Of a stretch of DNA of 64,000 bases, positions 2 through 36,300 are shown in pieces (positions within the stretch are counted from its first letter, which is position 1; each line of letters begins with the position of its first letter). Source of the stretch: CAVYHJ01 sp963768165 [NCBI: uncultured bacterium] (GTDB lineage Bacteria > UBP4 > UBA4092). The stretch lies in NCBI GenBank assembly GCA_963768165.1, contig CAVYHJ010000001.1:248001-312000 (forward strand), in the 5' to 3' direction. The position numbers were made by a program, and so were the translations under genes. The notes beneath the pieces are model-generated. The model saw only the letters and a list, made by a program, of their open reading frames with translations, was not told where the DNA came from and searched no databases.

Positions 2-3000
2 AAAACCTATTTATCCGTAGGAAAAATCAAAGAAGCATTGACGGAATATTCCTGCGTAGCGGACCATTATATAAAACATTCTTCCATAGACTCGGCAATA
101 ACCAATTTGCGGGAAATCCTTTCATTGGATTCCGACCAACTGGACGCGCGGGATAAACTGGCGCAAGCCTACTTAAAACAAGGGAATTATCGCAGTGCTA
201 CGACCGAACGGATGATACTGGCGAATAAATATATTGCTCTGAATCAAAAAGAACGCGCGATCACTCTATTTCGGGAAATCTTATCCGCCGATGAGAATAA
301 TGTGGATGTACGGAAACGGTTAATCGGCGTCGGACAAACGGTATTTGATCAATCCGCCCTCGCAAAAGAATATTTATCGCTGGGTGAATCGTATATCAAA
401 CGGCAGGCACCTGAGAAGGCAATAACAACGTTTCAAGGGTATAAGGAGCTTTATAAAGAGGATGCTGCCACGGAAGAAAAGTTTGCGGAGTTATTGGAGA
501 ATGGCGGATTTACGAAGGAGTCCATGGAAATCTATAAACAATGCGCGGAGACGTATTCCGCCCAAAAGAAATTCGACAAAGCCAAGCAGGTATTCGAAAA
601 ACTCCTTTCTCTTAATCCCGCAGACACCAAAATTCTAAAACGTATTGACACTCTAAAAGTACATCCTGTGCAGAGCCAGGATGGTATTGCGATACAACCG
701 AAACAAGAAACTTTGAAGTTTGAAGAAACTCCAAAGACGATATCGAAGCCGGAGAAACAAAACGCTTCTGTCTTGCAGAAATCTATTGATCAATCCATTT
801 CCATTGGCTCTTTGGATGACGCAAAGAAAGATCTTCTCGTACTGGCGGAGGAACACATCAAATCAAACCGTGTTGAGGACGCTATTACCAGTTTTAAAAA
901 AGCCGTAGAGATGGCTCCCAAGGATCCCAAGATTCACGAACGCTTGGTTTCATTTTTAAAGGAAAAATCAAAAACCGATGAATTGCGGGAAGAGAATATC
1001 CGCTTTGCAAACGAGATACTGCGAACCTTACCGACTGAAAAAGAAAAAAAATTGGCGGAAGAAGCCATTCTTGCCGCAATCCAGACAGATCCCGATCAAT
1101 TGGATACTTATGTAAAGTTGGTGGAATTCTACGACCGATCACGGAACCGGGAAAAATCCATTAAAATATCTCTGGAGTTGGCGGAGGTTGCCCTGCGTCA
1201 GAAGAAATATGATTTAGTCGAACAGACCTGCCAAAAAATCCTCGGTATGGATTCGGGCTACTTGCAAGCACGAGAAATTCTGGTGGAATTGTTCAAAGCC
1301 AAAAATATGATTCCACGTGCTATCGAAGAATTGTCACGATTGGCGGACCAGTTTTTATTAAAACAATTATTTGAAAAGGCCATTGATACGTATCAACGCG
1401 CATTGGAAATTGATCCTAAAAATTCGCCCATGTATAAAAATTTGATTGTCACTTATTTACAATCAGGAAATATTAATGAAGCTGTAAAACACTGTCTTTT
1501 ACTGGGCAAATTACACCAATCACTTAATGCCTTACCAGAAGCGGCGACAGTGTATCGCCGTGCACTAGAATTGGACCCGGTGAATTATGAAGCCCATGAA
1601 CGGTTAGCACAAATAGCAACAGCAACCGGTGCCAAAGATGAAGCGGCGCGAGAATATCATGAGATGTCGCGATTATCACTTTCTGCCGGAAACACGAAGC
1701 AGGCAATTGAAGGATTATCGAAGGCGATTTCAATTTCTCCACAAATGTATGAATATTATGAAGAGATTGCCGAAATCTGTTTATCCCAAAATCAAACTTC
1801 TCAATCCAACAAATACTTATTGCAATTGGCAGATTTAAAAGCCACGGATCATGGCACAAAAGAATCCATCCCGGTATTGCAGAAAATTCTTTCCACTGAA
1901 CCGGAAAATATTGAAGCGCTTGAGAAATTGGCATTTGCTTTTGAATCTTCCAAGAATATCAAACAAGCCGTGCAAGAATACACGAAAGCCGCAGAAATCC
2001 ATCAGAAAAAGAAAAATGCTCCACAAGCCATAACTGCGTGGAATAAAGCATTAAACTTGGACAAAGATTCCCCCACAATTCGGGAAAATCTGGTGACCCA
2101 ATACATTATTGTACGTCGCACGAATGAAGCGACAGAACAATTACTGTGGTTGTCAAATCATTATTTGGGTTCCAATACCCAAGACAAAGCCATCTCCTCT
2201 GCCCAACGTATTCTGGAAATCAACCCGCAGAATGTCGAAGCACATTTTGTATTAGCCGATATACATGCCAAGCAAGGTGATTTAGTAGCAGCAATTAGTT
2301 CCTTGGAACAAATCGCTGACCTGGCGAAAAAGACAAAACAATGGGATACGGCGCGATCCGCATACAATAAAGCTATTGAACTGGACTCGGAAAATCCGAA
2401 GTTACGCAACCAGCAAATTCAAATCGAATTATCTTCTGGGAATACTTCACATACCGCCGAACTATACGATTCATTAGGTCGGCTTTATGTTCAAAAAGGG
2501 ACTTTGAGTCAAGCCTGCACGGCGTTTGAAGAAGCACTGAAAACCGATCCGACAAATCTTGCTGTCCGTGCAAGATTAACAGATATTTATGTCCAACAAA
2601 AAAATCCGAAAGCGTTTGACACGCTTTTGAATCTTGCCGACGCCTATTGGGAGAGCGGTCAATTGGAAAAAACTATGGAAACTTTTAAACGGGCGTTGGA
2701 CTTGAATTCTAAAGATGAAAAATTATTGCGTTCAATAGCCAATTTGCATTTGCAAATGGACCAACAGAAAGAAGCAACGGATATTCTTTATCAATTAGCC
2801 GCATTAACCTTAAAAAAGAATCCCAAAGATGCAGCAGTGCTGGCCCAGGAGATATTACAAGTAGATTCCGGAAATATTGAAGGCCGGCAGTTATTGGCGG
2901 AAGCCTATTACAAATCAGATGCCAAATGGGATTCCGTGCGGGAATATTCAATTTTAGCAGAAACACTGGCTAAATCAGGAGTGTTACCCAAAGCCATTGA

Positions 3001-6000
3001 AATTTATAAGACTATCCTGGAAATAGACCCGCAAAATCTGGACGTTTTTAGTAAATTAGCAGCGGTTTATGAATCACAAAAACAGTCAAGCGAGTTGATC
3101 CAATTGTTAACCCAATATGCCCGTATTTTATTGGAAAAGAAAATTCCTGATCAAGCGACGGCAATACTTCAGAAAATCGCGACTCTGGATCCTTCCAATG
3201 TGGATACGCACAAACAATTGGTCAAACTTTTCCAAGAGACACACCAGACCGATAAAATCATGGAACAAAAAGTTATCTTGTCGGAAATTTACACAAAAAA
3301 CAAACAATACGATCTCGCCATCTCGGAACTTGAATCCACTAAAACCATTCAACCGGAAAATACCGAGATTCTTTGGAACCTAATTATTCTTTACGAACAA
3401 GTTCATAGAGTCTCCGATTTGTTAAAGTCTTATCTTTTTCTGGCAGAGATTCACGAAAAGAAAAATTCTCTATCTGAAGCACAAGATATTTATAAAAAAA
3501 TGCTGGAGATTGAACCCAAAGATACTATAATACTGACAAAATCGGCAGAATTATATTCACGCCAGAAAGCGACCAAGGAAGCTGTAAAACAATTCCGGGC
3601 TCTTGGTGAAGTATACCGTGAGACGCTCCAGTATGATCTAGCGATTGAATCTTTAAATCGCGCGATTAAAATAAACCCCGACGAAACTGAGGTTTATCAA
3701 ACATTAGTCGAACTTTATATTCAGCAGGGGAAAAAAGACAAAGCGATTCAAACATTATTCACTGTTGCAGATATTTATATCAACGAAGGTAATGCGACCA
3801 GTTGTGCGGAAGCGTATCAAATCGTTCTTTCGATTGATTCCGATCACATACCCGCCCGGATTAAATACGCGGAACTCTGCGGTAAAGGAAATCAACCGGA
3901 GATGGCCGCGGAACAATACCGCTTACTTGCGCAATCTTATATAAAAGCAAACCAATTAAATGAAGCGATTCCGGCTCTCAAAAAAGTTATTCAATATAAA
4001 CCGCAGGATACCGCGACACTCATCCAATTGGTGGAATTGCAGATTAAAACTAATGCTACTGCCAGTGCGTTGTCCACCTATATTGACCTCGCAAAACTTT
4101 TTATCGTCAAGGAAGAATTTGTCAAAGCGGAAGAATCATACAAAAAGGCCAGATCTCTGGATAGCACTTATATCCCCGCTCGCGAAGGGTTAATCGCCTT
4201 ATATAAGGACCAGGGAAAAAGAACGGAAGAAATTGAAGAAATATTCCAATTGGCGGATATTTTCCAACAAAAAAATCAAATCGAAAAAGCAATCAGTTAC
4301 TATCAGAAAATTACTTATCTTGAACCAAACAACCTAGCCTATCGCGAAAAGATAGCCGAAGGATACCTTCGATGGAATCGCCCCAAAGATGCCATAGCAC
4401 AATTATTGGAAGTCGCAGCAACCCATGAACAAGAAAACTCCTTTGATTCCGCGGTAAAAGGCTATCGTCGAATTTTAGATATCGATCCTTCACGCCTTGA
4501 TGTGGTCCAAAATATTGTCCAGATTCAATTAAGTCAAAAGAACGTACCCGCCGCTATTGATACTTTTATGAAACACGCGGAAAAACTTTCCAAGGCAGAC
4601 AAATACGACCTTGCAAAAGAATTACATCAAAAAGCCATTGATTTGAACCCACAAAACCCTATCCCGCGTCAGGCATTTATCGAAACATTGCGTAAAGCTT
4701 CCCGTATCACAGAAGCAGCAGCACAATATTTTGCGCTTATTGATCTATTCGAGAAGGCACGACAATTGGATAAAGCCATGCAAACATGCCGGGAAGCAAT
4801 TTCGTTTGATCCGAACAATGTCATTATCCGGGAACGGCTGGCGGATATGTCCATACGCTCCGGGCAACCCGCGCAAGCAACAGAACAATATCTCCAGCTA
4901 ATGAGTTTATATCAAAGTCAAAATAATACCAATGACATGATTAAAAGTTATGAACGTTATCTAGAAATTAATCCACGGGATGGTGAAATACGTGAACGGT
5001 TTTTGAAACTGTTGGAGCGATTGAACCGGAACGATGAGTTAATAAATCAACATGTCAAACATGCCCAGTTATTGGTGGGAGACGGTTATGCAGACAGAGC
5101 CATCAAATATCTTAAAAAACCGTCCCGTCAATTTCCAGAAGACACCTCCCTCCAAGTGATACTAGCGGATGCCTATGAAAAAACAGGATCACGTAAGTAT
5201 GCACTTTCCACGTATCAAGAGTTGTCAAAAAAACTCCTATCATTAAAACAATATCAACAGGCTATTTTGCCATTGGAACGATTATCGGTTTTAGATCCTG
5301 AGAACTTGGATATCCTTCAAAATTTATTTAAATCATCGTTGGAAATAAAAGATATTCCTCATGTCATTAGTTCTAGTGAACGATTGATTAAAATTTTTGT
5401 AAACAAAAGTGATTTCACTTCTGCAATATCCTGTTTGGAGTCGGTACGAAATCTCGATCCAAACCAAATTGCCTTGCGTGAAAAACTCATTGATCTGTAT
5501 AATCGTGCTGGAAACATAGATGCGGCCATCAAAGAACGTATCAAAATCGCTGATTTATATGAAACATCAGACCATATTCCTGAATCCATCAAAATGCTCA
5601 TTTCTTTGATTCAAGATCAGCCGACCAATCCAGATATTCATAATAAACTTCTCAAACTTTATCTAAAAACAGGACGCAAGAACGAAGCCTATAAACATTA
5701 TCTTGATTTATCGGAAATTTATAACCAACAAAAGAAGTTCGTGGAATCTGCGGATAGTTTGAAACAGGCTATCGCACTGGAACCGGAGAATGCCACCGCC
5801 CACCTGCATTTAATAACTCTCTATCGTACGTCTGCCCAACACAAGGAAGCTATTAATGAATATTGGAAATTGGGCGACCTCTATGAAAAAGCAAATCAAC
5901 TGAATGAAGCTGTGCGTTGCTATCAGCAAGCATTGGAATTGGAACCTTTCTCGACTGATTTGCACATTGCTCTGATTACAATTTTTCAACAACAGAAAAA

Positions 6001-7315
6001 GACTACGGAAGTTGTCAGTCAATATCAACTATTGGCAGAAACTTATACCCAGCAAAATAACTTTAAGGATGCCACTAGTGCTTATAAAAAAGCATTGGAA
6101 TTGGATCCCAAGAATATTCAAATCCGTCTTAAACTGATCGAGTCTCTTCTCGCGGAAAATGATACCGAATCCGCATCTCGGGAATATAAGTCTCTTGCAG
6201 AACAATATCTACAATCGGAAAAAATTGATTCTGCCATTGTCATTTACATTCGTTTAATTGAATTAAACGAAAAAGACAAGGAGCTTCGTAAAGATCTTGC
6301 CAAACTATATCAGAAAGTTGGCAAGATACACGAATACGTTACTGAATGTCTGAATCTGGCAAATTTATTGTTGGATGACAAACAGATAGATGAAGCCATT
6401 AATATCTTCAAAGACATTCTCGAACGAGAACCTAATAATCTTCATGCACGGAATGGACTGGCGAGGGCCTTTGTAGAAAAAGGCGATGAAAAATCTGCCT
6501 TAAAAGAATTTCTTTTTGTGAATCAGGTATTATCCAAGAGTGGAATGGGAGCCGCTGTGGATATCGAACGGGTGAAACATGCCGGGATTCAATTGTCACC
6601 CAAATTTACATTTGATAATTTTATTGTGGGCCAGCATAGTAATTTCGCATATGCTACCTCGCTGGCGGTGGGGAAAAGTCCTGGTCATGGTTACAATCCT
6701 CTTTTCTTATACAGCCAGCCTGGGATGGGGAAAACCCATTTACTCAACGCACTGGGAAACTATATTCGGAAAAATAGCCCGAATATGAAAGTAATGTATT
6801 CTACTTCCGAAACCTTCACTTCTGAATTGGTCAACGCCATCGAAACAAACACGGTCCCTGAATTCCAGGCACTGTATCGCAATGTAGATGTCTTACTTTT
6901 GGAAGACGTGCAATTCCTTGGAGGAAAGGAGCGAGCACAGGAAGAATTTTTTCATACCTTTAATATACTAATCCAATCGAATAAACAGGTTGTGCTTACT
7001 TCTGACCGGCCGCCAAAAGAATTGGCAACGCTGGAAAATCGAATTACTTCCCGGTTCCTGGGAGGAATCATTATTGACATCCAAAAACCGGATGTTGAAA
7101 CAAGATTGGCGATTCTTAAACAAAAAGTCAAACAAGCCAAAATTAAAATGGATGATGCCATCTTAGATAAAATTGCCAGCGGTGTGGATACCAATGTCCG
7201 TGAACTGGAAGGCGCTTTAAATAAACTGTTGGCTTATCATGAAAACGCCAAAATCGAAATTACCATGGACCTGGCAAATAATCTTCTACGGGATGTCCTC
7301 CCTTCAAGAAAATAA
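2..7315 (+). CDS. Giant TPR protein with C-terminal DnaA-type AAA+ domain (5' partial)
   Basis: The reading frame is open from base 2 with no stop, and the upstream codons already read as TPR sequence, so the TTG at 38 is not a credible start and the gene begins outside the window. Numbering from base 38, about residues 1-2180 are tandem TPR-like helical repeats (recurring AI..Y.KALELDP.N pattern). Residues 2188-2425 are a DnaA domain III: FTFDNFIVGQ entry motif, Walker A PGMGKT (2228-2233), initiator-type helices followed by YRNVDVLLLEDVQF (Walker B E2289-D2290, where DnaA normally has DD), sensor I VVLTSDRPPKEL, arginine-finger SRF (R2339) and sensor II NVRELEGAL (R2388). The protein stops 37 residues later, so the domain IV helix-turn-helix that binds DnaA boxes is absent. 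No signal peptide can be judged. Inference: an ATP-dependent scaffold or regulator built on a DnaA module, not a replication initiator. Domain calls are firm; the role is unknown. Confidence 0.93.
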   Translation, partial: KTYLSVGKIKEALTEYSCVADHYIKHSSIDSAITNLREILSLDSDQLDARDKLAQAYLKQGNYRSATTERMILANKYIALNQKERAITLFREILSADENNVDVRKRLIGVGQTVFDQSALAKEYLSLGESYIKRQAPEKAITTFQGYKELYKEDAATEEKFAELLENGGFTKESMEIYKQCAETYSAQKKFDKAKQVFEKLLSLNPADTKILKRIDTLKVHPVQSQDGIAIQPKQETLKFEETPKTISKPEKQNASVLQKSIDQSISIGSLDDAKKDLLVLAEEHIKSNRVEDAITSFKKAVEMAPKDPKIHERLVSFLKEKSKTDELREENIRFANEILRTLPTEKEKKLAEEAILAAIQTDPDQLDTYVKLVEFYDRSRNREKSIKISLELAEVALRQKKYDLVEQTCQKILGMDSGYLQAREILVELFKAKNMIPRAIEELSRLADQFLLKQLFEKAIDTYQRALEIDPKNSPMYKNLIVTYLQSGNINEAVKHCLLLGKLHQSLNALPEAATVYRRALELDPVNYEAHERLAQIATATGAKDEAAREYHEMSRLSLSAGNTKQAIEGLSKAISISPQMYEYYEEIAEICLSQNQTSQSNKYLLQLADLKATDHGTKESIPVLQKILSTEPENIEALEKLAFAFESSKNIKQAVQEYTKAAEIHQKKKNAPQAITAWNKALNLDKDSPTIRENLVTQYIIVRRTNEATEQLLWLSNHYLGSNTQDKAISSAQRILEINPQNVEAHFVLADIHAKQGDLVAAISSLEQIADLAKKTKQWDTARSAYNKAIELDSENPKLRNQQIQIELSSGNTSHTAELYDSLGRLYVQKGTLSQACTAFEEALKTDPTNLAVRARLTDIYVQQKNPKAFDTLLNLADAYWESGQLEKTMETFKRALDLNSKDEKLLRSIANLHLQMDQQKEATDILYQLAALTLKKNPKDAAVLAQEILQVDSGNIEGRQLLAEAYYKSDAKWDSVREYSILAETLAKSGVLPKAIEIYKTILEIDPQNLDVFSKLAAVYESQKQSSELIQLLTQYARILLEKKIPDQATAILQKIATLDPSNVDTHKQLVKLFQETHQTDKIMEQKVILSEIYTKNKQYDLAISELESTKTIQPENTEILWNLIILYEQVHRVSDLLKSYLFLAEIHEKKNSLSEAQDIYKKMLEIEPKDTIILTKSAELYSRQKATKEAVKQFRALGEVYRETLQYDLAIESLNRAIKINPDETEVYQTLVELYIQQGKKDKAIQTLFTVADIYINEGNATSCAEAYQIVLSIDSDHIPARIKYAELCGKGNQPEMAAEQYRLLAQSYIKANQLNEAIPALKKVIQYKPQDTATLIQLVELQIKTNATASALSTYIDLAKLFIVKEEFVKAEESYKKARSLDSTYIPAREGLIALYKDQGKRTEEIEEIFQLADIFQQKNQIEKAISYYQKITYLEPNNLAYREKIAEGYLRWNRPKDAIAQLLEVAATHEQENSFDSAVKGYRRILDIDPSRLDVVQNIVQIQLSQKNVPAAIDTFMKHAEKLSKADKYDLAKELHQKAIDLNPQNPIPRQAFIETLRKASRITEAAAQYFALIDLFEKARQLDKAMQTCREAISFDPNNVIIRERLADMSIRSGQPAQATEQYLQLMSLYQSQNNTNDMIKSYERYLEINPRDGEIRERFLKLLERLNRNDELINQHVKHAQLLVGDGYADRAIKYLKKPSRQFPEDTSLQVILADAYEKTGSRKYALSTYQELSKKLLSLKQYQQAILPLERLSVLDPENLDILQNLFKSSLEIKDIPHVISSSERLIKIFVNKSDFTSAISCLESVRNLDPNQIALREKLIDLYNRAGNIDAAIKERIKIADLYETSDHIPESIKMLISLIQDQPTNPDIHNKLLKLYLKTGRKNEAYKHYLDLSEIYNQQKKFVESADSLKQAIALEPENATAHLHLITLYRTSAQHKEAINEYWKLGDLYEKANQLNEAVRCYQQALELEPFSTDLHIALITIFQQQKKTTEVVSQYQLLAETYTQQNNFKDATSAYKKALELDPKNIQIRLKLIESLLAENDTESASREYKSLAEQYLQSEKIDSAIVIYIRLIELNEKDKELRKDLAKLYQKVGKIHEYVTECLNLANLLLDDKQIDEAINIFKDILEREPNNLHARNGLARAFVEKGDEKSALKEFLFVNQVLSKSGMGAAVDIERVKHAGIQLSPKFTFDNFIVGQHSNFAYATSLAVGKSPGHGYNPLFLYSQPGMGKTHLLNALGNYIRKNSPNMKVMYSTSETFTSELVNAIETNTVPEFQALYRNVDVLLLEDVQFLGGKERAQEEFFHTFNILIQSNKQVVLTSDRPPKELATLENRITSRFLGGIIIDIQKPDVETRLAILKQKVKQAKIKMDDAILDKIASGVDTNVRELEGALNKLLAYHENAKIEITMDLANNLLRDVLPSRK

Positions 7316-7394
7316 AATTCTCTTTACCTTTGACCGAATTTCATGTATATTCATAAACTGTTCTTAAATTACAAAAGGAGTATTAAAAACTGAA

Positions 7395-7949
7395 ATGCCG
7401 CTAGTACCTACACCCACAAAAATGTTTCTGACCAAAGGGGTCGGAAAACACCGCCAAAAATTATCTTCTTTCGAATTGGCATTACGCGATGCTGGTATCG
7501 AAAAATCAAATTTAGTCCGTGTCTCAAGCATTTTTCCACCGGGTTGCAAGATCATTTCTCGACGACAGGGGTTGACCTATCTGGAACCCGGTGAAATCAC
7601 TTTCGTCGTTTTAGCGGAAATCGCTACCAATGAACCGAATCGTCTAATCTCCGCTTCTGTGGGTATTGCCATTCCGGCTGATCCTTCCCAACACGGTTAT
7701 CTGAGCGAGCATCACTCCTATGGAATGACGGGTGATGATACCGCAGATTATACGGAAGATTTGGCGGCGGGGATGCTTGCGACGACTTTAGGAATTGAAT
7801 TCGACGAAGATGTTCATTGGGATGCACGTAAAGAACTCTGGAAGATGCATGAGAAAATCGTCCGCACCACCAATGTTACACAATCAGCCGAAGGCGATAA
7901 AGACGGACTTTGGACAACCGTTGTCGCCGCAGCGGTTCTTATCAAATAA
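7395..7949 (+). CDS. pdaD: Pyruvoyl-dependent arginine decarboxylase (PvlArgDC)
   Basis: A 184-residue protein matching the small archaeal/chlamydial PvlArgDC family. The proenzyme self-cleaves between two serines to make an N-terminal pyruvoyl group on the larger subunit; the site is visible as [10 protein letters not shown], with S44/S45 at the expected place. It converts arginine to agmatine plus CO2, the entry to polyamine synthesis or an acid-resistance antiport. An AAAGGAG sits about 14 bases before the ATG, rather far but the only candidate. The gene lies 79 bases after the TPR-DnaA gene and 77 before mutM on the same strand, with no visible functional link. A pyruvoyl aspartate or histidine decarboxylase is less likely from the length and motif. 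Confidence 0.9.
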
Positions 7950-7961
7950 AGGAGACAGGAG

Positions 7962-8019
7962 TAAGGAGTTAGGAGATAGGGAAAAACCTAACCCCTAAAT
8001 CCTAAATCCCAACTCCTAA
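7962..8019 (+). repeat. Imperfect inverted repeat between arginine decarboxylase and mutM
   Basis: The arm at 7962-7980 and the arm at 8001-8019 pair at about 15 of 19 positions, both built from (T)TAGGAGTT/AACTCCTAA-like units. A TTTTGTT follows, so it could act as a weak terminator for the upstream gene. It ends only 7 bases before the mutM ATG, which has no visible Shine-Dalgarno sequence. Confidence 0.45.
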
Positions 8020-8026
8020 TTTTGTT

Positions 8027-8851
8027 ATGCCTGAATTGCCAGAAGTTGAAACTATCCGTCGGGGACTCCTGCCTAAAATCAAAGGCAAAAAAATTGACTC
8101 CGCTATCCTTACCCTACCCCGTCTATTGGAATATCCGGCTCCCGCACAATTCCTTCATCGTTTAAAAAATACTTCGATTCGGGATATCGGACGTCACGGG
8201 AAATATCTATTATTTCATTTAGATAATAAAATGGATTTGATGATTCATCTTGGAATGACAGGCCGCTTGTTTGTCCATTCTTCAAATCAACCCCTGGATA
8301 AACATACCCATTTTCGTTTAAAACTGTATTCTTCAGAAGAATTGCGTTTTGTTGACGCCCGAACCTTTGGCAAACTTGCTCTCATATTCCACATCGATTA
8401 TTCTCCTGTGTTTGGCTTGGCGCATTTGGGAATTGACCCTCTATCTCCAAAATTTACTCTTCAAGAATTCACCAAAGTAACGGAATGTAATAGACAATTG
8501 AAAGCTGTCCTCATGGATCAATCCCGCATTGCCGGTCTTGGAAATATTTATGTGGATGAAGTATTACATCGTGCTTTCTTAAATCCAAAAAAATCCGCTT
8601 CTCGTTTAAAATTTACTCAAATTGAAATATTATTTAACTCTATCCGAGAAATTTTAAAGGAAGCTTTACATTACCGGGGAACAACTATTTTATCCTATGT
8701 AGATTCAGAAGTCCGATATGGTGAGTATCAGGATCATTTAAAAGTGTATGGAAGGGAAAATGAACCGTGCAGGAACTGCGGCAATTCCATTCGTCGTATC
8801 ATTCTCGTCAGTCGCAGCACATTCTACTGTCCCAAATGTCAACGGAAATAA
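8027..8851 (+). CDS. mutM: Formamidopyrimidine-DNA glycosylase (Fpg/MutM)
   Basis: A bifunctional base-excision enzyme removing 8-oxoguanine and formamidopyrimidines and nicking the abasic site. The N-terminus MPELPEVETIRRGL is the family signature: P2 is the catalytic nucleophile after Met removal and E3 the proton donor. The HGKYLLF segment holds the conserved lysine. The C-terminus is a complete zinc finger, CRNC about 16 residues CPKC, with the DNA-binding arginine region between. At 274 residues it has normal full length. It converges on the methyltransferase gene, the two stops being 8 bases apart. No clear ribosome binding site precedes the ATG, but the N-terminal signature fixes the start. 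Confidence 0.97.
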   Translation: MPELPEVETIRRGLLPKIKGKKIDSAILTLPRLLEYPAPAQFLHRLKNTSIRDIGRHGKYLLFHLDNKMDLMIHLGMTGRLFVHSSNQPLDKHTHFRLKLYSSEELRFVDARTFGKLALIFHIDYSPVFGLAHLGIDPLSPKFTLQEFTKVTECNRQLKAVLMDQSRIAGLGNIYVDEVLHRAFLNPKKSASRLKFTQIEILFNSIREILKEALHYRGTTILSYVDSEVRYGEYQDHLKVYGRENEPCRNCGNSIRRIILVSRSTFYCPKCQRK

Positions 8852-11269: not shown

Positions 11270-12700
11270 TTAGCTGACTTCAAGAACGTCCCGGAGAACC
11301 ATACGGCGTTTTCTAAGGAAATGGCGGGGATAAAGTTCGCCTTCACCGGTCGGTCCGGCAATGGAAAATGCGGTTGGTCCTTCGGCTTCATAACCCAAGA
11401 CAGATCCGCAATGAGAGTTGGCAACAAATAAATTACATGACATTTTTTTAGCAAAATGAGTAATACGACCAATATTCTTGGAATGGATCATGGCAGTATG
11501 CCGCAGACCATGTTCCGCTTGATACGCCAATTCAACAGCTTGTTCATAATCATTAGCCCTGACAATCGCTAGAATCGGCATCATAAGTTCGGTCTGGACA
11601 AAGGGATGATTCGAGTCCGTTTCACAAATCGCCAAAATTTTATCCTCCCCTATCCGAACCCCAATATCATTAAGAATAACACTGGCATTTTTGCCGACAT
11701 ATTCCTTTTTGATGGAACCGTCGGGATTAAGTACCGTATTTTTTAGCCTGTCCGTCTCTGTAGATGACAATAAATAAGCCCCATTGCGCTGCATAGCGTC
11801 TATTAGCCTGTCTGCGACACTCCGTACCACGAAACATTCTTTCTCGCAAATACAGGGCATATTGTTATCGAAAGCTGCCCCCCGGACAATAGATTGCGCA
11901 GCATTCTCGATATCGGCAGTTTCATCCACAACTACAGGTGGATTTCCGGGTCCAGCAACCATTGCCCGTTTTCCAGATTCCATTGCTGCGCGCACAACAC
12001 CGCCCCCTCCTGTCGCGACAATCAAATTAATCCGTTTATGTTTCATTAATTCAGCGGAACTTCTTAAAGAGGGTTCCGCAACAGAGGTCATCAGATTTTC
12101 CGGCCCACCCAGTTTGACAATGGTTCGGTTAAGGACTTTCATGGTTTCATTGGAGCATAAGGCGGCATTGGGATGGGGATTAAAGGTCACGGCATTCCCA
12201 GCGGAGAGAATAATAATACCATTATTAATTATCGTCGCTGTTGGATTGGTTGTTGGAGTAATTGAGCCGACCACCCCCACGGGGCTGTACACTGCCAAAG
12301 TTATTCCCCGGTCACCGATATACATCTCTTTGGGTAAATCTTCAACACCCGGAGTTTTAGTAGCCACCAGCCAATTCTTTGCTCTTTTATCCGCTACTCT
12401 ACCCATCTTGGTATCGGCAACCGCCAACTCCGCTAATCGTTGGGCATGTTCCAATGCCGTCTCCCGCATTCCTTGAATAATTTCACGTCGCTTTTCAAAA
12501 CCTAATGCAACAAATTGTTTTTGGGCTGTCGCTGCGGCATTTACCGCAGAATCCACATCCGTAAATACGCCATCTCCCAAAGAAGTTTTTGGTGAAGATG
12601 TAGCCGTAGAGACCGTTGAACTCACACTTCCTGATTCATTCTGCATGGACCGTAAGACTTGTTCTACTATTCGACTTATTTCTTGTTCGGAAAGCGACAT
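11270..12700 (-). CDS. CoA-acylating aldehyde dehydrogenase of a microcompartment (PduP/EutE-like)
   Basis: Oxidises a short aldehyde (here probably L-lactaldehyde) to acyl-CoA with NAD+. The 476-residue protein has the catalytic cysteine in DNNMPCICEKE (C283), the nucleotide-fold segment VVGSITPTTNP and the long glycine run VATGGGGVVRA. Residues 2-19, LSEQEISRIVEQVLRSMQ, form an amphipathic helix followed by a Ser/Thr-rich linker (to about 37): the usual form of an N-terminal encapsulation peptide that targets enzymes into BMC shells. It is the last gene of the operon, 47 bases after the flavoprotein-like gene. The aldolase upstream makes lactaldehyde and PduL would take the acyl-CoA on. The family is certain; substrate is inferred from context. 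Confidence 0.95.
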   Translation of the reverse strand: MSLSEQEISRIVEQVLRSMQNESGSVSSTVSTATSSPKTSLGDGVFTDVDSAVNAAATAQKQFVALGFEKRREIIQGMRETALEHAQRLAELAVADTKMGRVADKRAKNWLVATKTPGVEDLPKEMYIGDRGITLAVYSPVGVVGSITPTTNPTATIINNGIIILSAGNAVTFNPHPNAALCSNETMKVLNRTIVKLGGPENLMTSVAEPSLRSSAELMKHKRINLIVATGGGGVVRAAMESGKRAMVAGPGNPPVVVDETADIENAAQSIVRGAAFDNNMPCICEKECFVVRSVADRLIDAMQRNGAYLLSSTETDRLKNTVLNPDGSIKKEYVGKNASVILNDIGVRIGEDKILAICETDSNHPFVQTELMMPILAIVRANDYEQAVELAYQAEHGLRHTAMIHSKNIGRITHFAKKMSCNLFVANSHCGSVLGYEAEGPTAFSIAGPTGEGELYPRHFLRKRRMVLRDVLEVS

Positions 12701-12747
12701 ATTTAAAACCTCATTTTAATAAATTCAAATTTAATTTATTTACTGTT

Positions 12748-13572
12748 TTATTCAATTGTAATTTCCAATTGTTTGGCAGTATCCCGTGCCAATGGAGTAA
12801 CCAGCGAACCCGGTTTTAAAATAATCTTTTTAGCACCCGATTTGGCAGCTAACGTTACTTCTCGTTCTGTAATCAATTCCCTGTCCATTCCAAAAGGTGT
12901 CATTTCATCCACCTTTTCAATCGTACCGGTTGCCATTTTAATTGCCTTGTCCGTCTCCATTGCCAATTGTTTGACATCCACCAATCGCATTCCCCACCGT
13001 TCTAATTTTTGCAACTGGGTAATGATTGAAGCCATCAAATCGCTGGGTAAGGACGGTAATCCCCATTTAGCAAATTCACCTTCTGCTGGGTCTACTCCAT
13101 TTTTCGCAGCGACTACCGCTTTTTTCGAAACCAACGCAAGAAAAATTAGATAAAGAATAAATGAGTCCGTGATTCCGTATGATAATTTTAAAGCAGTATT
13201 CCTGGATAATGTACCCACCATAATACCCACATGACCATTTAACAATTTGATAATCCCCTCGCCATCTGTATCTGGAACAATAGAACTAATCCCTGTTAAT
13301 TCCACAAATTTATTGGTTCCCGGATTATTTTTACAATTCGGGCAAAGTACCAAATTAAATCCAAACCCTTTGGCGCGAAGTTGTTTGATTTGTTCTACAC
13401 TTTCATTCAAACCAATATCCGTACCGGTATATATTACTAAAATCGATTTACCAGATCCGGGAACTGGTGTGCTGGGTACACTTGAGGGAGTTACACTTCC
13501 ACCGGACAGGATTTTCTGTAATTCTTGTTCTACTAATTTGGCTATTTTGGATTCATCAATCATATAGGTCAT
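12748..13572 (-). CDS. Flavoprotein-fold protein with encapsulation peptide (microcompartment cargo)
   Basis: About 274 residues. The N-terminal helix IDESKIAKLVEQELQKILSG plus a Pro/Ser-rich linker is a typical encapsulation peptide. Then comes a Rossmann-like flavoprotein domain (PF02441-like: ILVIYTGTDIGLNESVEQIK, FNLVLCPNCKNN), and the C-terminus reads KKIILKPGSLVTPLARD, a tail seen in several BMC proteins. Such proteins occur in BMC loci, but their chemistry is not settled; flavin binding is inferred from the fold. I choose the ATG at 13572: it overlaps the pduL stop as ATGA, implying translational coupling, whereas the in-frame ATG at 13614 would lie inside pduL. Another in-frame ATG three codons on (13563) is also possible. 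Confidence 0.78.
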   Translation of the reverse strand: MTYMIDESKIAKLVEQELQKILSGGSVTPSSVPSTPVPGSGKSILVIYTGTDIGLNESVEQIKQLRAKGFGFNLVLCPNCKNNPGTNKFVELTGISSIVPDTDGEGIIKLLNGHVGIMVGTLSRNTALKLSYGITDSFILYLIFLALVSKKAVVAAKNGVDPAEGEFAKWGLPSLPSDLMASIITQLQKLERWGMRLVDVKQLAMETDKAIKMATGTIEKVDEMTPFGMDRELITEREVTLAAKSGAKKIILKPGSLVTPLARDTAKQLEITIE

Positions 13573-14261
13573 TTTATTAATGAAACAAACATTCCTGTTT
13601 TCACCAAAGCACAATTCCCATCATCCGTATCCAAATGCATTTCAAGCCGAAAATTCGGATGTACTCGGCAAAATACTTTTTCAAAGAGTGTCGGTTTGTC
13701 GGTATTCACAAAGATTTTCACGGTTTGTTCATTCTCCACGCCAAAATGTGCGGCATCATCGGGGCTCATGTGAATATGCCGGCTGGCGCAAATTCCACAA
13801 GGTCGTGTAATGGATCCCTTCGGTCCGACCAGGGTTAACTCCACTCCCCCTTTATGCCCTACCGAAACGGCTACTGGAGGTTCCACACCCAGGTAAATCG
13901 CATCCGTACGAGAAATTTCCACTTGAGTTTTTCCACGAGCAGGTCCAAGAACACGCACCTTCTCAAACTTTCGCTTATTGGGTCCAATTACAGTAAGTTG
14001 TTCATCATAGGCAAATTGATTTTTCTGATATAAGGCATTCCGCACAGTCATTTGATATCCTGCACCGAAAAGAATGTCCTGATCTTCCTGAGACAAATGT
14101 AAATGCCGCGCAGAAATAGCAAGAGGAATCAAACGTTTCCCATCCGGCCCGAATTGCGGTGGGCCATACATATGAGAGGCTTTCTCTTCCAGTTCTTGAA
14201 CTTTGAGCGAGTCCATGACGCGACGTGTAATAAGCGTCACCAATTCCTGTTGGTCCATCAA
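13569..14261 (-). CDS. pduL: PduL-type phosphate acyltransferase
   Basis: The BMC phosphotransacylase swaps CoA for phosphate on the acyl-CoA made by the aldehyde dehydrogenase, recycling CoA within the shell and yielding acyl-phosphate for ATP synthesis. At 230 residues it has both halves of the PduL fold, with zinc-site motifs SARHLHLS and ASRHIHMS and the C-terminal LEMHLDTDDGN. Residues 3-20, DQQELVTLITRRVMDSLK, look like an N-terminal encapsulation helix. Its stop overlaps the start of the flavoprotein-like gene. A 92-base gap with a hairpin separates it from the second BMC-H gene. Confidence 0.95.
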   Translation of the reverse strand: MMDQQELVTLITRRVMDSLKVQELEEKASHMYGPPQFGPDGKRLIPLAISARHLHLSQEDQDILFGAGYQMTVRNALYQKNQFAYDEQLTVIGPNKRKFEKVRVLGPARGKTQVEISRTDAIYLGVEPPVAVSVGHKGGVELTLVGPKGSITRPCGICASRHIHMSPDDAAHFGVENEQTVKIFVNTDKPTLFEKVFCRVHPNFRLEMHLDTDDGNCALVKTGMFVSLIK

Positions 14262-14289
14262 TCCCCCAATTTATAAATTGATGATTCTA

Positions 14290-14333
14290 GATTGCAGATT
14301 TCAGATTAACTAATAAAACTGAAATCTAAAATC
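14290..14333. repeat. Hairpin between the BMC-H gene and pduL
   Basis: Arms 14290-14304 (GATTGCAGATTTCAG) and 14319-14333 pair at 13 of 15 positions around a 14-base AT-rich loop. There is no T-run in the minus direction, so it is not a standard terminator. It sits inside the operon, between the two shell genes and the downstream cargo genes. A related sequence (GATTACAGATTTTAGATTTC) occurs near 40835-40860. Confidence 0.55.
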
Positions 14334-14352
14334 TGAAATTGGCAAATTCCAC

Positions 14353-14631
14353 TTATTTTCCGCTCGGTAATATTTTGTCAAGTTCTTGATGCGGACGCGG
14401 GATGACGTGAACGGATACCAATTCACCGACTCGTTTCGCCGCTGCTGCACCGGCATCTGTTGCCGCTTTCACGGCACCGACATCGCCACGTACCATGACG
14501 GTGACATACCCGCCGCCAATTTTTTCTTTTCCAATTAATGTCACGTTGGCAGCTTTGACCATGGCATCTGCGGCTTCAATTGAGGCCACATTACCTTTGG
14601 TTTCTATTAAACCTAATGCTTCTCCTACCAT
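14353..14631 (-). CDS. BMC-H hexameric shell protein (92 aa)
   Basis: A single BMC domain (PF00936) of canonical PduA/CcmK length. Visible are the N-terminal [10 protein letters not shown] strand, the helix with [12 protein letters not shown], the pore-region run [19 protein letters not shown], and SVHVIPRPH at the end. Hexamers tile the facets of the shell and pass small polar metabolites through the central pore. A strong AAGGAGG precedes the ATG by 9 bases. It lies 38 bases after the other BMC-H gene; the two are paralogues that probably mix in one shell. Confidence 0.97.
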
Positions 14632-14669
14632 TTCTTATTTCCTCCTTAAATTAATTATGTTGCTTTTGT

Positions 14670-15023
14670 TTATTTGGATTTCTTTCCACTTTTATCCGAA
14701 TCACCCGCTGGCTTTAAAACATCCGTGCGGCCATACGATTGCAGTTCCGGAACTGTATCAATTAATATATCCACTTGATCGTCCGGGCGGGGAATCACAT
14801 GCACGGCAGATAACTGGCTAATCCGTTTCGCTGCCGCAGCACCGGCATCCACTGCCGCTTTTACGGCACTCACTTCACCAATCAATTTTACTGTGGATAT
14901 ACCTGCATCGGCTTGGGCAATCTCAACCAACGACACCTCTGCCGCTTTCAATGCCGCATCCGCCGCCTCGATACTACCCACAAGCCCTATAGTCTCAATC
15001 ATTCCCAAGGCTTGTAGACCCAT
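14670..15023 (-). CDS. BMC-H hexameric shell protein with C-terminal extension
   Basis: A BMC domain (about residues 1-88: LQALGMIETIGLVGSIEAAD, then ISTVKLIGEVSAVKAAVDAG, ending SAVHVIPRPDD) followed by about 30 extra residues, hydrophilic and lysine-rich at the end. The usual BMC-H length is 90-100, so the tail is an extension. I choose the ATG at 15023 because GGGAGG stands 8 bases upstream; an in-frame GTG 9 bases earlier lies too close to it. First shell gene of the operon, 57 bases after the aldolase. Confidence 0.95.
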   Translation of the reverse strand: MGLQALGMIETIGLVGSIEAADAALKAAEVSLVEIAQADAGISTVKLIGEVSAVKAAVDAGAAAAKRISQLSAVHVIPRPDDQVDILIDTVPELQSYGRTDVLKPAGDSDKSGKKSK

Positions 15024-15079
15024 AAACCTCACCTCCCAATTTGATTTTTTTAATATTTATCATTGTGCGTTATTTTACG

Positions 15080-15886
15080 TCAAGACGATTGACTTTGCAA
15101 TCGGTTGACAATTTCCCTGGTAATTTTCATCACCAATTCGGTCTGTGCCATTTGTCCTTCCTCCTTCGCACAGGTAGCTACATAGTCAGAATCATTTTTT
15201 GAGCTATAAGGAGTTGGATTCGTGATACACGATTGAGCAACCTTGGCCATACCCGGATGTGTTTCTATTAATCGCTGAACTTGCTGCGCGTCCAAAACCC
15301 GTTCTCCACCGAGTATTTTTGCGGTAAGAAGAATTTTTGCAAACTGTTCCATACTTTCCATGTGATAATATGCCGAGTAAATATCTTTGCCTACCGTTAA
15401 TGCTCCGTGATTCGCGAGTAATAAAGTGTCTCGTCCCCGGATGATATTTCTAATTTTATCAGGAATTTCATTGGTAGACGAAGTAGCATAATCGGCGATA
15501 GGAATGGCACCAATAGTCACAATAATTTCCGGAAGAATACATTTGTCTAACGGGACTCCAGCCACCGCAAAGCCCGTGGCAGTCGGTGGATGGGCATGAA
15601 CTACAGCAACGACATCCGGCCTCTCTTCATAAACAGCCAAATGCATTTTGAGTTCACTGGAAGGTTCATAACGAGAATCGCCGGATAATTTCTTTCCCTT
15701 TAAGTCGGTTTTAATAATATGTTCGAAAGCAAGATATCCTTTACACAGATCGCGAGCAGTAACCAAAATCTCTTCCTCACTTATTCGGATGCTAAGGTTG
15801 CCTTCTCCGGCAACAATATATCCTCGTGCATAAAGCCTTTTCCCAATTTCAATAATGTCATTTATCGCTTGCTGTTCTTCAAACAT
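15080..15886 (-). CDS. Class II aldolase (L-fuculose/L-rhamnulose-1-phosphate aldolase type), microcompartment-targeted
   Basis: A zinc aldolase of the FucA/AraD family splitting a deoxyketose 1-phosphate to dihydroxyacetone phosphate and L-lactaldehyde. Seen: GEGNLSIR near residue 28, SSELKMH (E78, the catalytic acid position), metal ligands HAH (H97, H99), and LLLANHGALTVG. The family is usually about 215 residues; here 268, the excess being a linker and a C-terminal amphipathic helix (LVMKITREIVNRLQ) that reads as a C-terminal encapsulation peptide, as known for Planctomycetes-type BMC aldolases. First gene of the operon, so lactaldehyde would be made inside the shell. Fuculose versus rhamnulose specificity cannot be read here. 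Confidence 0.93.
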   Translation of the reverse strand: MFEEQQAINDIIEIGKRLYARGYIVAGEGNLSIRISEEEILVTARDLCKGYLAFEHIIKTDLKGKKLSGDSRYEPSSELKMHLAVYEERPDVVAVVHAHPPTATGFAVAGVPLDKCILPEIIVTIGAIPIADYATSSTNEIPDKIRNIIRGRDTLLLANHGALTVGKDIYSAYYHMESMEQFAKILLTAKILGGERVLDAQQVQRLIETHPGMAKVAQSCITNPTPYSSKNDSDYVATCAKEEGQMAQTELVMKITREIVNRLQSQSS

Positions 15887-29904: not shown

Positions 29905-31233
29905 TTAGGTAAATAATTCTTTGATGGGAACGCCGTCATCCACCAGTTTAATAGGTCTGCCCATCGGGGTATAATTGGTTTCGGAACCGTCAATTCCCAA
30001 ACATTGCGCGAATGACGCGAATAAATTGGGAACAGAAATAGGGTTACTCGTGAGTTCAAATCCATCTTCATCCGTCCCGCCAATGACCCGGCCGCCTTGA
30101 ATACCGCCGCCTGCTACCACGATAGACCAGGCTTTGGGATAATGATCCCGACCGGCATTTTGATTAATTTTCGGAGTCCGTCCGAATTCACCCATCCAGA
30201 TGACCAGTGTTTCATCGAGCATCCCGCGCTGTTTTAAATCCGCCAGCAACGTGGAAAATCCCGGGTCTAATTCCGCTTGAAGTTTTTCCCCACGGTTAAA
30301 ATTGTCCTGATGAGTATCCCAACCCGGTAATGTCACTTCCACAAATTTCACGCCGGATTCCACCAATCGCCGCGCGAGTAAACATCCCTGCCCAAACGGT
30401 GTCCGACCATACGCATCGCGCAACGCATCCGGCTCCGCGTCTAGATTAAACGCCTTTAAATCTGGTGAGTGCATGAATTTGACGGTCTTGGAATAAATGG
30501 TTTCATGGGCGGCGACTTCTTTTCCGCCATGCGTGATTTCAAAATTGGACGCTAATTTTTCTTGTAAAGAAAGCCGTTCGCGGAATCGTTTTTCATCCAC
30601 ATCCTTGGGTGGATTAATATTGTCAATTGGTTTGGTTGGGTCGGCAACATAAAATGGAGAATTTTCCATTCCCAAATAACCCGCGCCAAAGGACGGATTT
30701 CGTAGAGCCACAAAATTAGGCAAATCAAAATTTGGGTCGCCCATCTTGGCAGAAACTATCGAACCAATACTGGGATGTTTAACCGTCGCTTGCGGTTTAA
30801 ATCCGGTATGAAGATAATAGCGGGCGCGTTCGTGATTCCCTTCCCCCGTGGACATGGAACGGATAATGGCGATTTTGTCCGTGTGCTTTGCCACACCCGA
30901 TAAATGTTCGCTAATTTGAATTCCCGGGACTATTGTAGAAATGGCTTTGAAAGAACCTCCCGTGTCCCTGCCCGGTTTGGGGTCCCAGGTATCCAACTGG
31001 CTGGGGCCGCCGTCCATCCATAATAAAATGCACGCTTTCGCTTTGGCGGCATTGGGTTCCGCCGCGCGCGCGGTTTCCGTGAACAGGGTATAGAGAGAAC
31101 TGCCAAATAAAAAACTGCTGAAAGTTAATGCACTCCCTTTGATAAACCCGCGCCGCGATACACCATTGTGCAGGAGTTCCATTTCGTTAATAACCTTGAT
31201 AGGGTCAAATTCGCAATCTTTACATTTATGCAT
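29905..31233 (-). CDS. DUF1501 secreted protein (sulfatase-like fold, Tat signal)
   Basis: 442 residues. A twin-arginine signal NGVSRRGFIKGSALTF begins at about residue 23 and cleavage probably falls after ARAAEP, so it is exported folded. Then ACILLWMDGGPSQLDTWDPK, ISTVVPG-type segments, GEFGRTP and NQNAGRDHYP are DUF1501 hallmarks; the fold belongs to the alkaline phosphatase/sulfatase group. Planctomycetes encode many such genes directly after DUF1549/DUF1553 cytochrome-like genes, exactly as here (100 bases downstream). Function unknown. Confidence 0.93.
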   Translation of the reverse strand: MHKCKDCEFDPIKVINEMELLHNGVSRRGFIKGSALTFSSFLFGSSLYTLFTETARAAEPNAAKAKACILLWMDGGPSQLDTWDPKPGRDTGGSFKAISTIVPGIQISEHLSGVAKHTDKIAIIRSMSTGEGNHERARYYLHTGFKPQATVKHPSIGSIVSAKMGDPNFDLPNFVALRNPSFGAGYLGMENSPFYVADPTKPIDNINPPKDVDEKRFRERLSLQEKLASNFEITHGGKEVAAHETIYSKTVKFMHSPDLKAFNLDAEPDALRDAYGRTPFGQGCLLARRLVESGVKFVEVTLPGWDTHQDNFNRGEKLQAELDPGFSTLLADLKQRGMLDETLVIWMGEFGRTPKINQNAGRDHYPKAWSIVVAGGGIQGGRVIGGTDEDGFELTSNPISVPNLFASFAQCLGIDGSETNYTPMGRPIKLVDDGVPIKELFT

Positions 31234-33339: not shown

Positions 33340-36300
33340 TTATTTCTTTAACAATGTCTGTAAATCTGTAAAAGGCGCATTATTCCCGACAAAAGAAACC
33401 CTATATGGAATTTTGATTGGCGAAGTCGTATCTTTTGGGTTATAGGTATACATCATCCAATCGTTCACGGGAACTGGTTCAGAGACGGTTGTGAAATTCC
33501 ATTGAGCGGACGTACCAGACCCGAAGGCATTTTTCGCCACCACATACCAATCGTACTGGGTATTAGATTGTAAAGTACTCGGTGTCCAATAGGTAACTAA
33601 TAAATTGGATACCGAAGGTGACGTGGGTTGAGAATATCCATCTTTCCAGAGATAGACGTCATATTGGGTAGCCCGGTCAGCAACATTCCAACTCAATAAT
33701 TGGTTCAACGACACATTATTAGTACTGCTATTGGGTTGCGGGAATGCCGGAGCATCCGGCGGAAGGTTGGCAATGGTATTAAACCAGGTATTCGTACTGA
33801 TTGCGGCATTGGTATCGAATATTACATTACCGGCATTGTTAATAATCGTGCCTGCCGTATCCGTGGACTTGGGATACACTGTAAATGAAACAAACCCTGT
33901 ACCTCGTCCTGAACCATCTTCTGGCGGCAGGAAACCTGCCAAGGCGTCATCCGGTATTTGACCCGTTTTGGGGTCAATGATGGTCAATGTCCAGGTAGCT
34001 TGTCCGGTGCCGGAGTTGAAATTACAGGTCACGGTTACCCACCATTGGTTGGTGGTACCCGGACGCCAGTCGGGTATCGTAACCCGTGTAAAATATTGCT
34101 GGGTATCCTGGGAAATTGCAATATTGTTACTTCCAAAAGAAATTCCATTCAAAGCAAAAGTTGAATTATTCAGATATGTAACGAGGTTATCCGTTACGAT
34201 GACCTGTTGTGCCGGGGCTAAAGCCGTAGATTCATTCTCAAAATAAATCATATAATTTAGAGGGTCGGTAACTCCAATATATCGCACACTATCCCCCCCA
34301 TATCCAGCCGGACCGATTTTCTCATTCGGGTCAACCGAACTGACCGCTTGGCATGAGCCACCACTCTTTGTATTAGACAAGGATGATGGTGACGGTGTGG
34401 TAGGGGGTGTTGATGGATGATTTTTAAATTCATCATAAAGATAATTACCAAATCTACCAATTCCATAACCTATTCCAATCCAGGTCTTTGGAATTCTCGA
34501 ACTATAAGACAAATCTTCGATGATTTGTGTGAAGAGGAGTGGTATCTTATCGCCATTCATATATACAAACAAATTCGCATTATTATAAGTTGGAACAGCA
34601 ACATTTTTAATCATATAAACAGCAGCATCACCAGCAGCATCCAAAGCAAAAAAAGCAACATCAACTGCTGCGCCTATTACTACTTCTGGTGCTAAAAGGG
34701 TTACAATTACAGCGCCAAGAATAAGACCTTTAGTGGTTCCAGATAATAATCCATTCGGGTCAATTAAATTCACCGGATTATTAACACAATAAGTATAAAG
34801 ATTAACTCCACCAACGATATTGATGGGGTCTTCTGTTACAAAGCGTCCGATATTAGTTGCATAATATCTATTTCTCATAAAATTTATTGAATTGCCGTCA
34901 GCTATGACCCCAAACCGTCCGACATACTGGAAAATGTTACTAATAGATTCCTGTTGGGTTAATAAAATCCCAAAAGGTGTGTAATCATAACTGTTAAGTA
35001 TGTTGCCGGTTGTACCTGTCAATTCCCTTGTATTTCCAATCGCATCAAAATCATAATACGCTTGAGTACCCGTACCCGCATCCTGCCGTGCAATCAGTCC
35101 GAGTCCGTAGGTATACTGGGCAATAGGAGTATTGGAATTATCGTATTCGCCAGCCAGTGCGCCGCCACTGATGGGGTCATAAATATAATGTCGGGTAACA
35201 CCGTTAATAGTGACCGTAGCCCGGTTTCCCAAGGCATCGTAGGTATAGTTCCATGTAGTAGCCAGGGATACCACACTGATTAATCTATTTTCAAAATCAT
35301 AGGTATAAAAAGTAGTTTTCCCGCTGACTACCATCGTTAGCATGTTCCCGTCGGTATCGTAAGAAAAAGTAGTTCCACCTGCTTGAGAATATTGGTTCAT
35401 AATATTGGTGGAATAGTTGGAGAGAGTATTATTGTTCTTGACTGAAATCCGGTTTCCCGCGGAGTCGTAGGTGTATGTTTCCACACTTCCCGTCGAATAG
35501 AACACTGCCGTCAATTGACTGAGGGCATCATATTTATACCGGGTGGTTCCCTGTAGGGTAGTCATGGAAGTCCGGTTGCCCAAAGAATCGTAGGTATAAA
35601 TAAACTGAGAAAGGGTGGAAGAACCACTGGGAGCATAATTCATCATGCTTAAAATTTGTCCGGCAGAATCATAGGTATATTGGGTATAAACCCCGTTTCC
35701 CTTGGTTTCTTGAGTGACTTTCCCGGCACTGTCATAGGTGTATTGTATGAGTGTGGTTGACCCGCTGGTAAGTTGGAGCAAACGTCCAGCGGTATCATAG
35801 GAATAATTTAAAATTGTACTGCTTTGGTCAATCCGTTGGGTCAGTTTACCGCCGGAATCGTAAGAATAGGAAAAGAATTGTCCCGTGGGATAAGTAATTT
35901 GGGTAAGGAAATCCCGTGAGTCATATTGCATAGAGATAGTACCTGTAGAATCCGTGGCGGAGGTTAGACGATTAAACGAGTCATAGGTATACGTCACGAA
36001 ACTACCATCAGGATAATTCTTTCGGGTGGGCTGACCGTTCGTATTGTATAGATAGGTAATTTTCTGTCCTTTACGATTGGTGGCGCTGGTTGCATTTCCA
36101 AAGGTATCATAGATAAAAGATTTGGAAGATGAATCAGGGGATACAATGGTTAATAAATTTCCCTTGGTGTCATAACTGAAAGTCGTGAGGTGTTGCTTGG
36201 CATCCTGCAAAGACGAAAGCTTATTGAAATTTGAAGAATAAGATAAATTGATTATATGACCCGCCGCATCAAGAATGCCATTGGTAAGACCTTGGAGATT

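What the first reader, a model, noticed from the sequence alone, without database searches (positions are those of the whole stretch)
2..7315. Giant TPR protein ending in a DnaA domain III that lacks the DNA-binding domain
More than 2100 residues of TPR-like repeats are joined without a break to a near-perfect DnaA AAA+ module: Walker A and B, initiator-type helices, sensor I, arginine finger SRF and sensor II are all present. Domain IV, which reads DnaA boxes, is missing, and domains I and II are replaced by the repeat array. The module could still bind ATP and assemble with itself or with the cell's true DnaA, so it may be a DnaA sequestering or regulating scaffold (Hda-like in logic), or a new ATPase machine. 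I know of no described system with this build.
Basis: partly seen in the sequence, partly recalled or inferred. Interest (0 to 1): 0.78.

Follow-up and report, generated by a model that had tools for sequence, protein, structure and literature searches.

The report
Giant repeat protein with truncated DnaA
An uncultured bacterium encodes a very long repeat protein that ends in the ATP-binding engine of the chromosome-replication initiator DnaA but without its DNA-reading part, so it may hold or control the initiator rather than start replication itself.

Summary
Window 2-7315(+) is one frame of 2437 residues, open at its 5' end: 36 scored units of a 54-residue, three-helix TPR-type repeat, a flexible linker, and a DnaA domain III that stops at the III/IV border. 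No domain IV was found in the window. The module is DnaA-type, not Hda-type. It keeps 72 of 84 columns conserved in 123 ordinary DnaAs (E. coli DnaA keeps 77). Four of five residues reported as needed for DnaA-DnaA contact are identical, the fifth is Ile for Leu, and ssDNA residues V211 and R245 are kept. The one active-site change absent from all 122 comparable rows is Walker B Asp to Glu; Walker A Gly to Ser occurs in 3 of 122. The N-terminus lies outside the window, so absence of domain I is unproven. No TPR-DnaA fusion was seen among the rows listed for about 964 genomes of nine groups, judged by frame length, but the lineage is unidentified and probably unsampled. Best reading: a TPR scaffold that joins a DnaA-type AAA+ assembly without reading DnaA boxes. 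Whether its partner is the cell's DnaA or itself is unknown: no whole genome is held.

The parts
2..7315 (+). whole open frame, 5' end outside the window; 2437 residues plus stop
38..6499 (+). TPR-type array, residues 13-2166: 36 scored 54-residue units plus 106 residues (873-978) that would fit two more; interruptions at residues 229-274 and 329-386
   Evidence: three helices per unit in the model of the last four units
6542..6586 (+). flexible linker, residues 2181-2195 (pLDDT under 50); holds an in-frame ATG at 6545
6593..7312 (+). DnaA domain III (AAA+), residues 2198-2437, ending at the domain III/IV border
6713..6736 (+). Walker A SQPGMGKT, residues 2238-2245; first position Ser (Gly in 119, Ser in 3 of 122 DnaA rows)
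6830..6832 (+). Val2277 = E. coli V211 (H motif, ssDNA contact)
6893..6907 (+). Walker B LLLED, residues 2298-2302; Glu2301 stands where 122 of 122 DnaA rows have Asp
6926..6934 (+). K2309-E-R2311 = E. coli K243 and R245 (contact and ssDNA residues)
6998..7006 (+). TSD, residues 2333-2335 (sensor I region)
7040..7054 (+). R2347 (box VII, E. coli R281) to R2351 (arginine finger, E. coli R285)
7199..7201 (+). R2400 = sensor II, E. coli R334
7313..7315 (+). stop codon where domain IV would begin

Best explanation
A DnaA-derived AAA+ module has lost its DNA-box-reading domain and become the tip of a very long TPR solenoid. Shown: one continuous frame, a regular 54-residue TPR-type array, a predicted flexible tether, and a domain III of DnaA type that keeps the arginine finger, box VII, R227, K243, sensor II and the ssDNA H/B motif residues, with one change (Walker B Asp to Glu) that no compared DnaA has. 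Inferred: through its head-to-tail faces the module joins or caps a DnaA-type filament, most likely the cell's own DnaA, without binding DnaA boxes. The Walker B change may slow ATP turnover, so that it acts as a binding and tethering partner more than a cycling initiator. The TPR solenoid would carry the partner or signal that decides where or when this happens.
For: Domain III identity and fold. Of the five residues that PMC5742627 (passages read) names as required for domain III-domain III interaction (R285, R227, L290, R281, K243), four are identical and L290 is Ile; V211 and R245 are kept. The same five in other proteins without domain IV: E. coli Hda keeps 1 (R285), L139 keeps 1 (K243), L140 keeps 4 but loses R281. 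72 of 84 columns conserved in at least 90% of 123 distinct DnaA rows are kept, against 77 in E. coli DnaA. A flexible linker is predicted between the two parts. L140 shows that another genome, which also has an ordinary DnaA, carries a paralogue cut at the same border.
Against: No genome, so no proof that a partner DnaA exists or that the contact forms; no multimer prediction could be run. Glu for Asp in Walker B may impair nucleotide use, on which head-to-tail contact depends. L290 is Ile, and W288 is Gly (W in 108, G in 4 of 122 rows). L140, without any TPR part, keeps nearly as many contact residues, so their retention is not special to a scaffold role. No relative was found, so conservation of the design cannot be tested. 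The next gene, an arginine decarboxylase, gives no replication context. 0 exact DnaA boxes TTATNCACA in the window, 2.95 expected.
Confidence: 0.36

Rival explanations
1. Self-contained AAA+ hub: the module assembles only with copies of itself, gathering many TPR arms around an ATP-dependent core, in a process unrelated to replication. TPR plus NTPase hubs of the MalT/STAND kind work like this (recalled, not tested).
For: Both head-to-tail faces kept, which would suffice for self-assembly; long TPR array on a flexible linker; no initiation gene recognised among the window genes scanned.
Against: ssDNA residues V211, K243 and R245 are kept as well, which a pure oligomer hub would not need; but the neighbouring S246 position (T in 109 of 123 rows) is Ala.
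Confidence: 0.28
2. ssDNA- or helicase-binding adaptor: domain III binds single-stranded DNA or the replicative helicase at forks or origins, and the TPR array brings other factors.
For: H/B motif residues kept; after DnaA and Hda the next fold neighbours are the helicase loaders DnaC and DnaI and the transposition helper IstB; PHROGs best match is a DnaC-like helicase loader, E 1.3e-17.
Against: Position S246 (T in 109 of 123 rows) is Ala; the DnaA match is far stronger than any loader match.
Confidence: 0.12
3. Passive relic: a partial dnaA copy was captured at the 3' end of a large TPR gene and is kept without a role of its own, now decaying.
For: Walker B Asp to Glu, not seen in 122 rows; long tree branch of 1.35; a single occurrence found.
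Against: 72 of 84 conserved columns kept, near E. coli DnaA's 77; no stop or frameshift over 240 residues; confident model, mean pLDDT 93.8.
Confidence: 0.1
4. Assembly chimera of a TPR gene and a dnaA gene.
For: No reads and no second genome to confirm the join.
Against: The join is in frame and lies in a linker; the frame ends at a domain border with an ordinary intergenic gap; synonymous codon use of the two sides correlates at r 0.85, within the 0.61-0.87 that the module shows with nine other window genes; a chimera with a real dnaA would be expected to run on into domain IV, which is absent.
Confidence: 0.04

Closest known systems
DnaA domain III (B. subtilis 8bv3/8btg, T. maritima 2z4r, A. 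aeolicus 1l8q/3r8f/2hcb)
   Same: Z 28.3-32.8, rmsd 1.2-2.2 A, 40-51% identity over 214-239 residues; contact and ssDNA residues kept
   Different: no domain IV, a giant TPR array upstream, Walker B Asp to Glu
Hda, the DnaA inactivator
   Same: DnaA-family AAA+ without domain IV; Walker A first Gly replaced (Ala in E. coli Hda)
   Different: only 86.3 bits to the Hda model (cut-off 194.8); 16-20% identity to the three Hda entries listed; E. coli Hda lacks R281, K243 and R245, which are kept here; no Q-L-x-L-type clamp-binding motif in the part seen (regular-expression scan)
   Same: stops at the same III/IV border
   Different: N-terminal region like DnaA domain I (by eye), no TPR array, Walker residues intact, R281 and D269 lost
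TPR solenoids (consensus TPR 8chy, O-GlcNAc transferase 1w3b)
   Same: TPR-type helices
   Different: 54-residue three-helix period in place of 34 residues and two helices (the latter recalled)

Membership tests
DnaA initiator | AAA+ domain III of DnaA type | tested here: met
   TIGR00362 336.2 bits (cut-off 343.9 for the whole protein, just missed), Pfam Bac_DnaA full length, DnaA best fold match
DnaA initiator | domain IV that binds DnaA boxes | tested here: not met
   frame ends at the III/IV border; no domain IV found in the window, control found
DnaA initiator | Walker A and Walker B residues | tested here: inconclusive
   GKT kept; Gly1 is Ser, as in 3 of 122 DnaA rows; Walker B Asp1 is Glu, seen in 0 of 122
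DnaA initiator | arginine finger, box VII, sensor II | tested here: met
   R2351, R2347, R2400
DnaA initiator | N-terminal domain I | not testable with these tools
   N-terminus lies outside the window
Hda | score above the Hda family cut-off | tested here: not met
   TIGR03420 86.3 bits, cut-off 194.8
Hda | N-terminal clamp-binding site (feature stated in PMC5742627, passages read) | tested here: inconclusive
   no Q-L-x-L-type motif in the 2437 residues seen; N-terminus not seen
Hda | stimulates ATP hydrolysis by DnaA | not testable with these tools
   biochemistry needed
TPR protein | TPR profile matches over their cut-offs | tested here: met
   TPR_19 464.9 bits (cut-off 25) and others

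The most novel reading that the evidence does not exclude
A TPR scaffold that inserts a box-blind DnaA domain III into the cell's DnaA filament and so ties replication initiation to a large protein platform: a kind of initiator control in which the regulator is itself a DnaA module on a solenoid arm.
Probability: 0.22. Interest if true: 0.8.

Novelty: new variant of a known kind. Interest (0 to 1): 0.5.

Why it matters
Known DnaA controllers act by promoting hydrolysis of its ATP, by titrating it on DNA, or by binding its domains (recalled in part; RIDA and DDAH in passages of PMC5742627). A DnaA module stripped of its DNA reader and mounted on a giant scaffold would be a different way to tether or cap the initiator, and a testable case of how domain III behaves without domain IV. 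L140 and L139 suggest that domain-IV-less DnaA copies arise more than once.

Tried and rejected
Corrected on checking: searches compared the module with 102 DnaA rows that had been picked by a motif requiring the first Walker A Gly and RELEG, and that included some genes fetched twice; their '102 of 102 Gly' and 'R334 in 102 of 102' are circular. One search repeated the comparison without any motif (127 loci, 127 with a hit, 4 identical rows dropped, 123 distinct). Walker A Ser is then found in 3 of 122 rows and is no longer called unique; Walker B Glu remains in 0 of 122. The counts 73 of 88 (window), 30 of 88 (Hda), 72 of 88 (L140) and 52 of 88 (L139) belong to the picked set; the positions compared one by one in that call do not depend on it. 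For this reason the odds of the relic reading were lowered from 0.12 to 0.10.

Searches for relatives. Whole-genome searches with the module or the module plus last repeats: 972 genome slots, about 964 distinct, 911 slots with a match at limits from 1e-10 to 1e-30; no fusion seen, judged by open-frame length, so a gene split by a frameshift or a contig end could be missed, and the row lists are cut. Five frames over 700 aa were read and are ordinary DnaAs with chance open frames upstream; a 668-aa frame likewise. Plasmids: 57 records matched, all listed, upstream regions not read. Phage records: 40 matched, 15 listed, not read. Viral contigs: single protein, 0 relatives; alignment, 16 loci, frames of 295-602 aa. 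Viral structure library: the 50 rows shown are AAA+ proteins of many kinds, several named DnaC or replicative helicase. PF00308 search of one genome: 1 match, with matches in 13 of 14 control genomes.

Taxon: LigA against 22 genomes, 19 matched, best identity 53%, not decisive. Tree of domain III (101 rows, 97 different, also picked by motif; bootstrap not settled): no supported set holds the window row. Internal start at 6545: weak Shine-Dalgarno-like stretch at best; not pursued. PADLOC: no match for the module; E 7.9e-4 to NsnC for residues 1-499, read as a TPR match.

Literature: searches (42 papers, 20 listed; 2; 5; 8,519, 10 listed; 76, 12 listed; 6; 1) showed no TPR-DnaA fusion in titles or starts of abstracts. 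Passages of PMC1800911 and PMC2635572 annotate DnaA-like and TPR genes of a Rickettsia plasmid as separate genes. The library holds open-licence papers only, and the Pfam name may have failed on spelling.

Full report
The observation. The frame 2-7315(+) is 2437 residues long, starts before the window and ends with TAA at 7313-7315. A pyruvoyl-dependent arginine decarboxylase gene follows at 7395. Pfam gives TPR families and one complete Bac_DnaA match at residues 2198-2359.

The repeat array. The sequence matches itself best at lags of 54 and 108 residues, with lesser peaks such as 34 and 74. A position-specific score placed 36 units of 54 residues; 32 of the 35 intervals are exactly 54, and residues 873-978 would fit two more. 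Mean identity between units is 0.21, highest 0.37, and no lag from 1 to 7 units stands out, so the array looks old and not recently expanded. The model of the last four units shows three helices per unit. The linker 2181-2195 has pLDDT under 50.

The DnaA module. NCBIfam scores it 336.2 bits to DnaA (cut-off 343.9) and 86.3 to Hda (cut-off 194.8). A model of the module alone has mean pLDDT 93.8. Its best solved matches are DnaA domain III, Z 28.3-32.8; Hda follows at 20.9 and DnaC at 19.7. It ends at the III/IV border: 197 residues after the P-loop glycine against 292-301 in 80 of 80 loci of the first scan. tblastn of 95 DnaA C-terminal pieces found no domain IV: best E 0.004 in the window, far from the gene, and nothing better than E 1.6 within 7000-8200, while the control L141 was found at E 1e-21. 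tblastn of the module and of E. coli Hda showed no second copy in the window.

What is kept and what is changed. The final comparison uses 123 distinct DnaA rows found by similarity alone; earlier comparisons had picked rows by motif and are superseded for the picked positions. 84 module columns are conserved in at least 90% of rows; the window keeps 72 and E. coli DnaA keeps 77. The kept set includes R227, K243, R281, R285 and R334 in E. coli numbering and the ssDNA residues V211 and R245; L290 is Ile (3 of 122 rows). Roles come from passages of PMC5742627. Of the changes, Walker B Asp to Glu is seen in 0 of 122 rows; the first Walker A Gly is Ser, as in 3 of 122. So the module is DnaA-like on its contact faces with one unusual active-site residue.

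Comparison with other domain-IV-less proteins. Three were aligned. E. coli Hda keeps one of the five contact residues. L139 (248 aa, in genome G205, which also has an ordinary DnaA) keeps one and has Arg for the P-loop Lys. L140 (345 aa, in G614, which also has an ordinary DnaA) keeps four but loses R281. No domain IV was found in loci L139 and L140 (best E 0.010 and 0.10). The window module keeps four identical plus Ile for Leu. This is a small set, noticed because the searches happened to show it, and L140 comes close to the window module without any scaffold.

Distribution. Ten whole-genome searches covered 972 genome slots, about 964 distinct genomes: one mixed set of 17 and nine groups centred on genomes whose loci are titled Omnitrophica, Saganbacteria, Calditrichia, Cloacimonadota, Blastocatellia, Bacillota, Nitrospira, Chloroflexi and one unnamed bacterium. 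911 slots had a match. No listed row was a TPR fusion by frame length; the five frames over 700 aa were read and are ordinary. The lists are cut. No whole genome is held for the window, and its lineage was not identified; a DUF1501 gene hints at groups that could not be reached (recalled). The absence is therefore weak evidence.

Is the join real? Synonymous codon use of the two sides correlates at 0.85; the module against nine other window genes gives 0.61-0.87. GC3 is 0.38 and 0.41. This makes a chimera unlikely but does not exclude it.

Mechanism. DnaA protomers stack head to tail, the arginine finger of one meeting the ATP of the next (passages of PMC5742627). A module with both faces but no box reader could join, cap or extend such a stack, or stack with itself. 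The Walker B change may slow hydrolysis (inference). The TPR arm would bind something else (inference). Whether the partner is the cell's DnaA, the protein itself, ssDNA or a helicase is not decided by any result here; the first is favoured because the kept residues include both the DnaA-DnaA contacts and the ssDNA motif.

Novelty. The library searches showed no TPR-DnaA fusion in the listings; passages were read in PMC5742627, PMC1800911 and PMC2635572. The parts are known kinds; their combination is what is new, so it is filed as a new variant.

Noticed in passing
L140:1686-2723: A 345-aa DnaA paralogue with a domain-I-like N-terminus (by eye) and domain III but no domain IV found in the locus, in a genome that also has an ordinary 465-aa DnaA frame; sensor I and box VII residues are changed.
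   Followed up: partly
L139:2992-3738 (minus strand): A 248-aa domain-III-only DnaA relative with Arg for the P-loop Lys and Val for the arginine finger, near genes that look by eye like a ClpX-type and a RecA-type ATPase; the genome also has an ordinary 469-aa DnaA frame.
   Followed up: partly
window 11270-15886: Minus-strand genes of bacterial-microcompartment type (by recall): PduL-type phosphate propanoyltransferase (13569-14261) and class II aldolase (15080-15886); the 476-aa gene at 11270-12700 was not scanned and looks by eye like a CoA-acylating aldehyde dehydrogenase.
   Followed up: no
window 33340-38556: 1738-aa RHS/YD-repeat protein.
   Followed up: no
window 29905-31233: DUF1501 protein, a possible hint to the lineage (recalled).
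   Followed up: no
window 6545: In-frame ATG in the flexible linker that could in principle start a module-only product of 256 residues; only a weak Shine-Dalgarno-like stretch upstream.
   Followed up: partly
window 1-64000: No exact TTATNCACA DnaA box in the window; mean 2.95 (sd 1.81) in shuffles.
   Followed up: no
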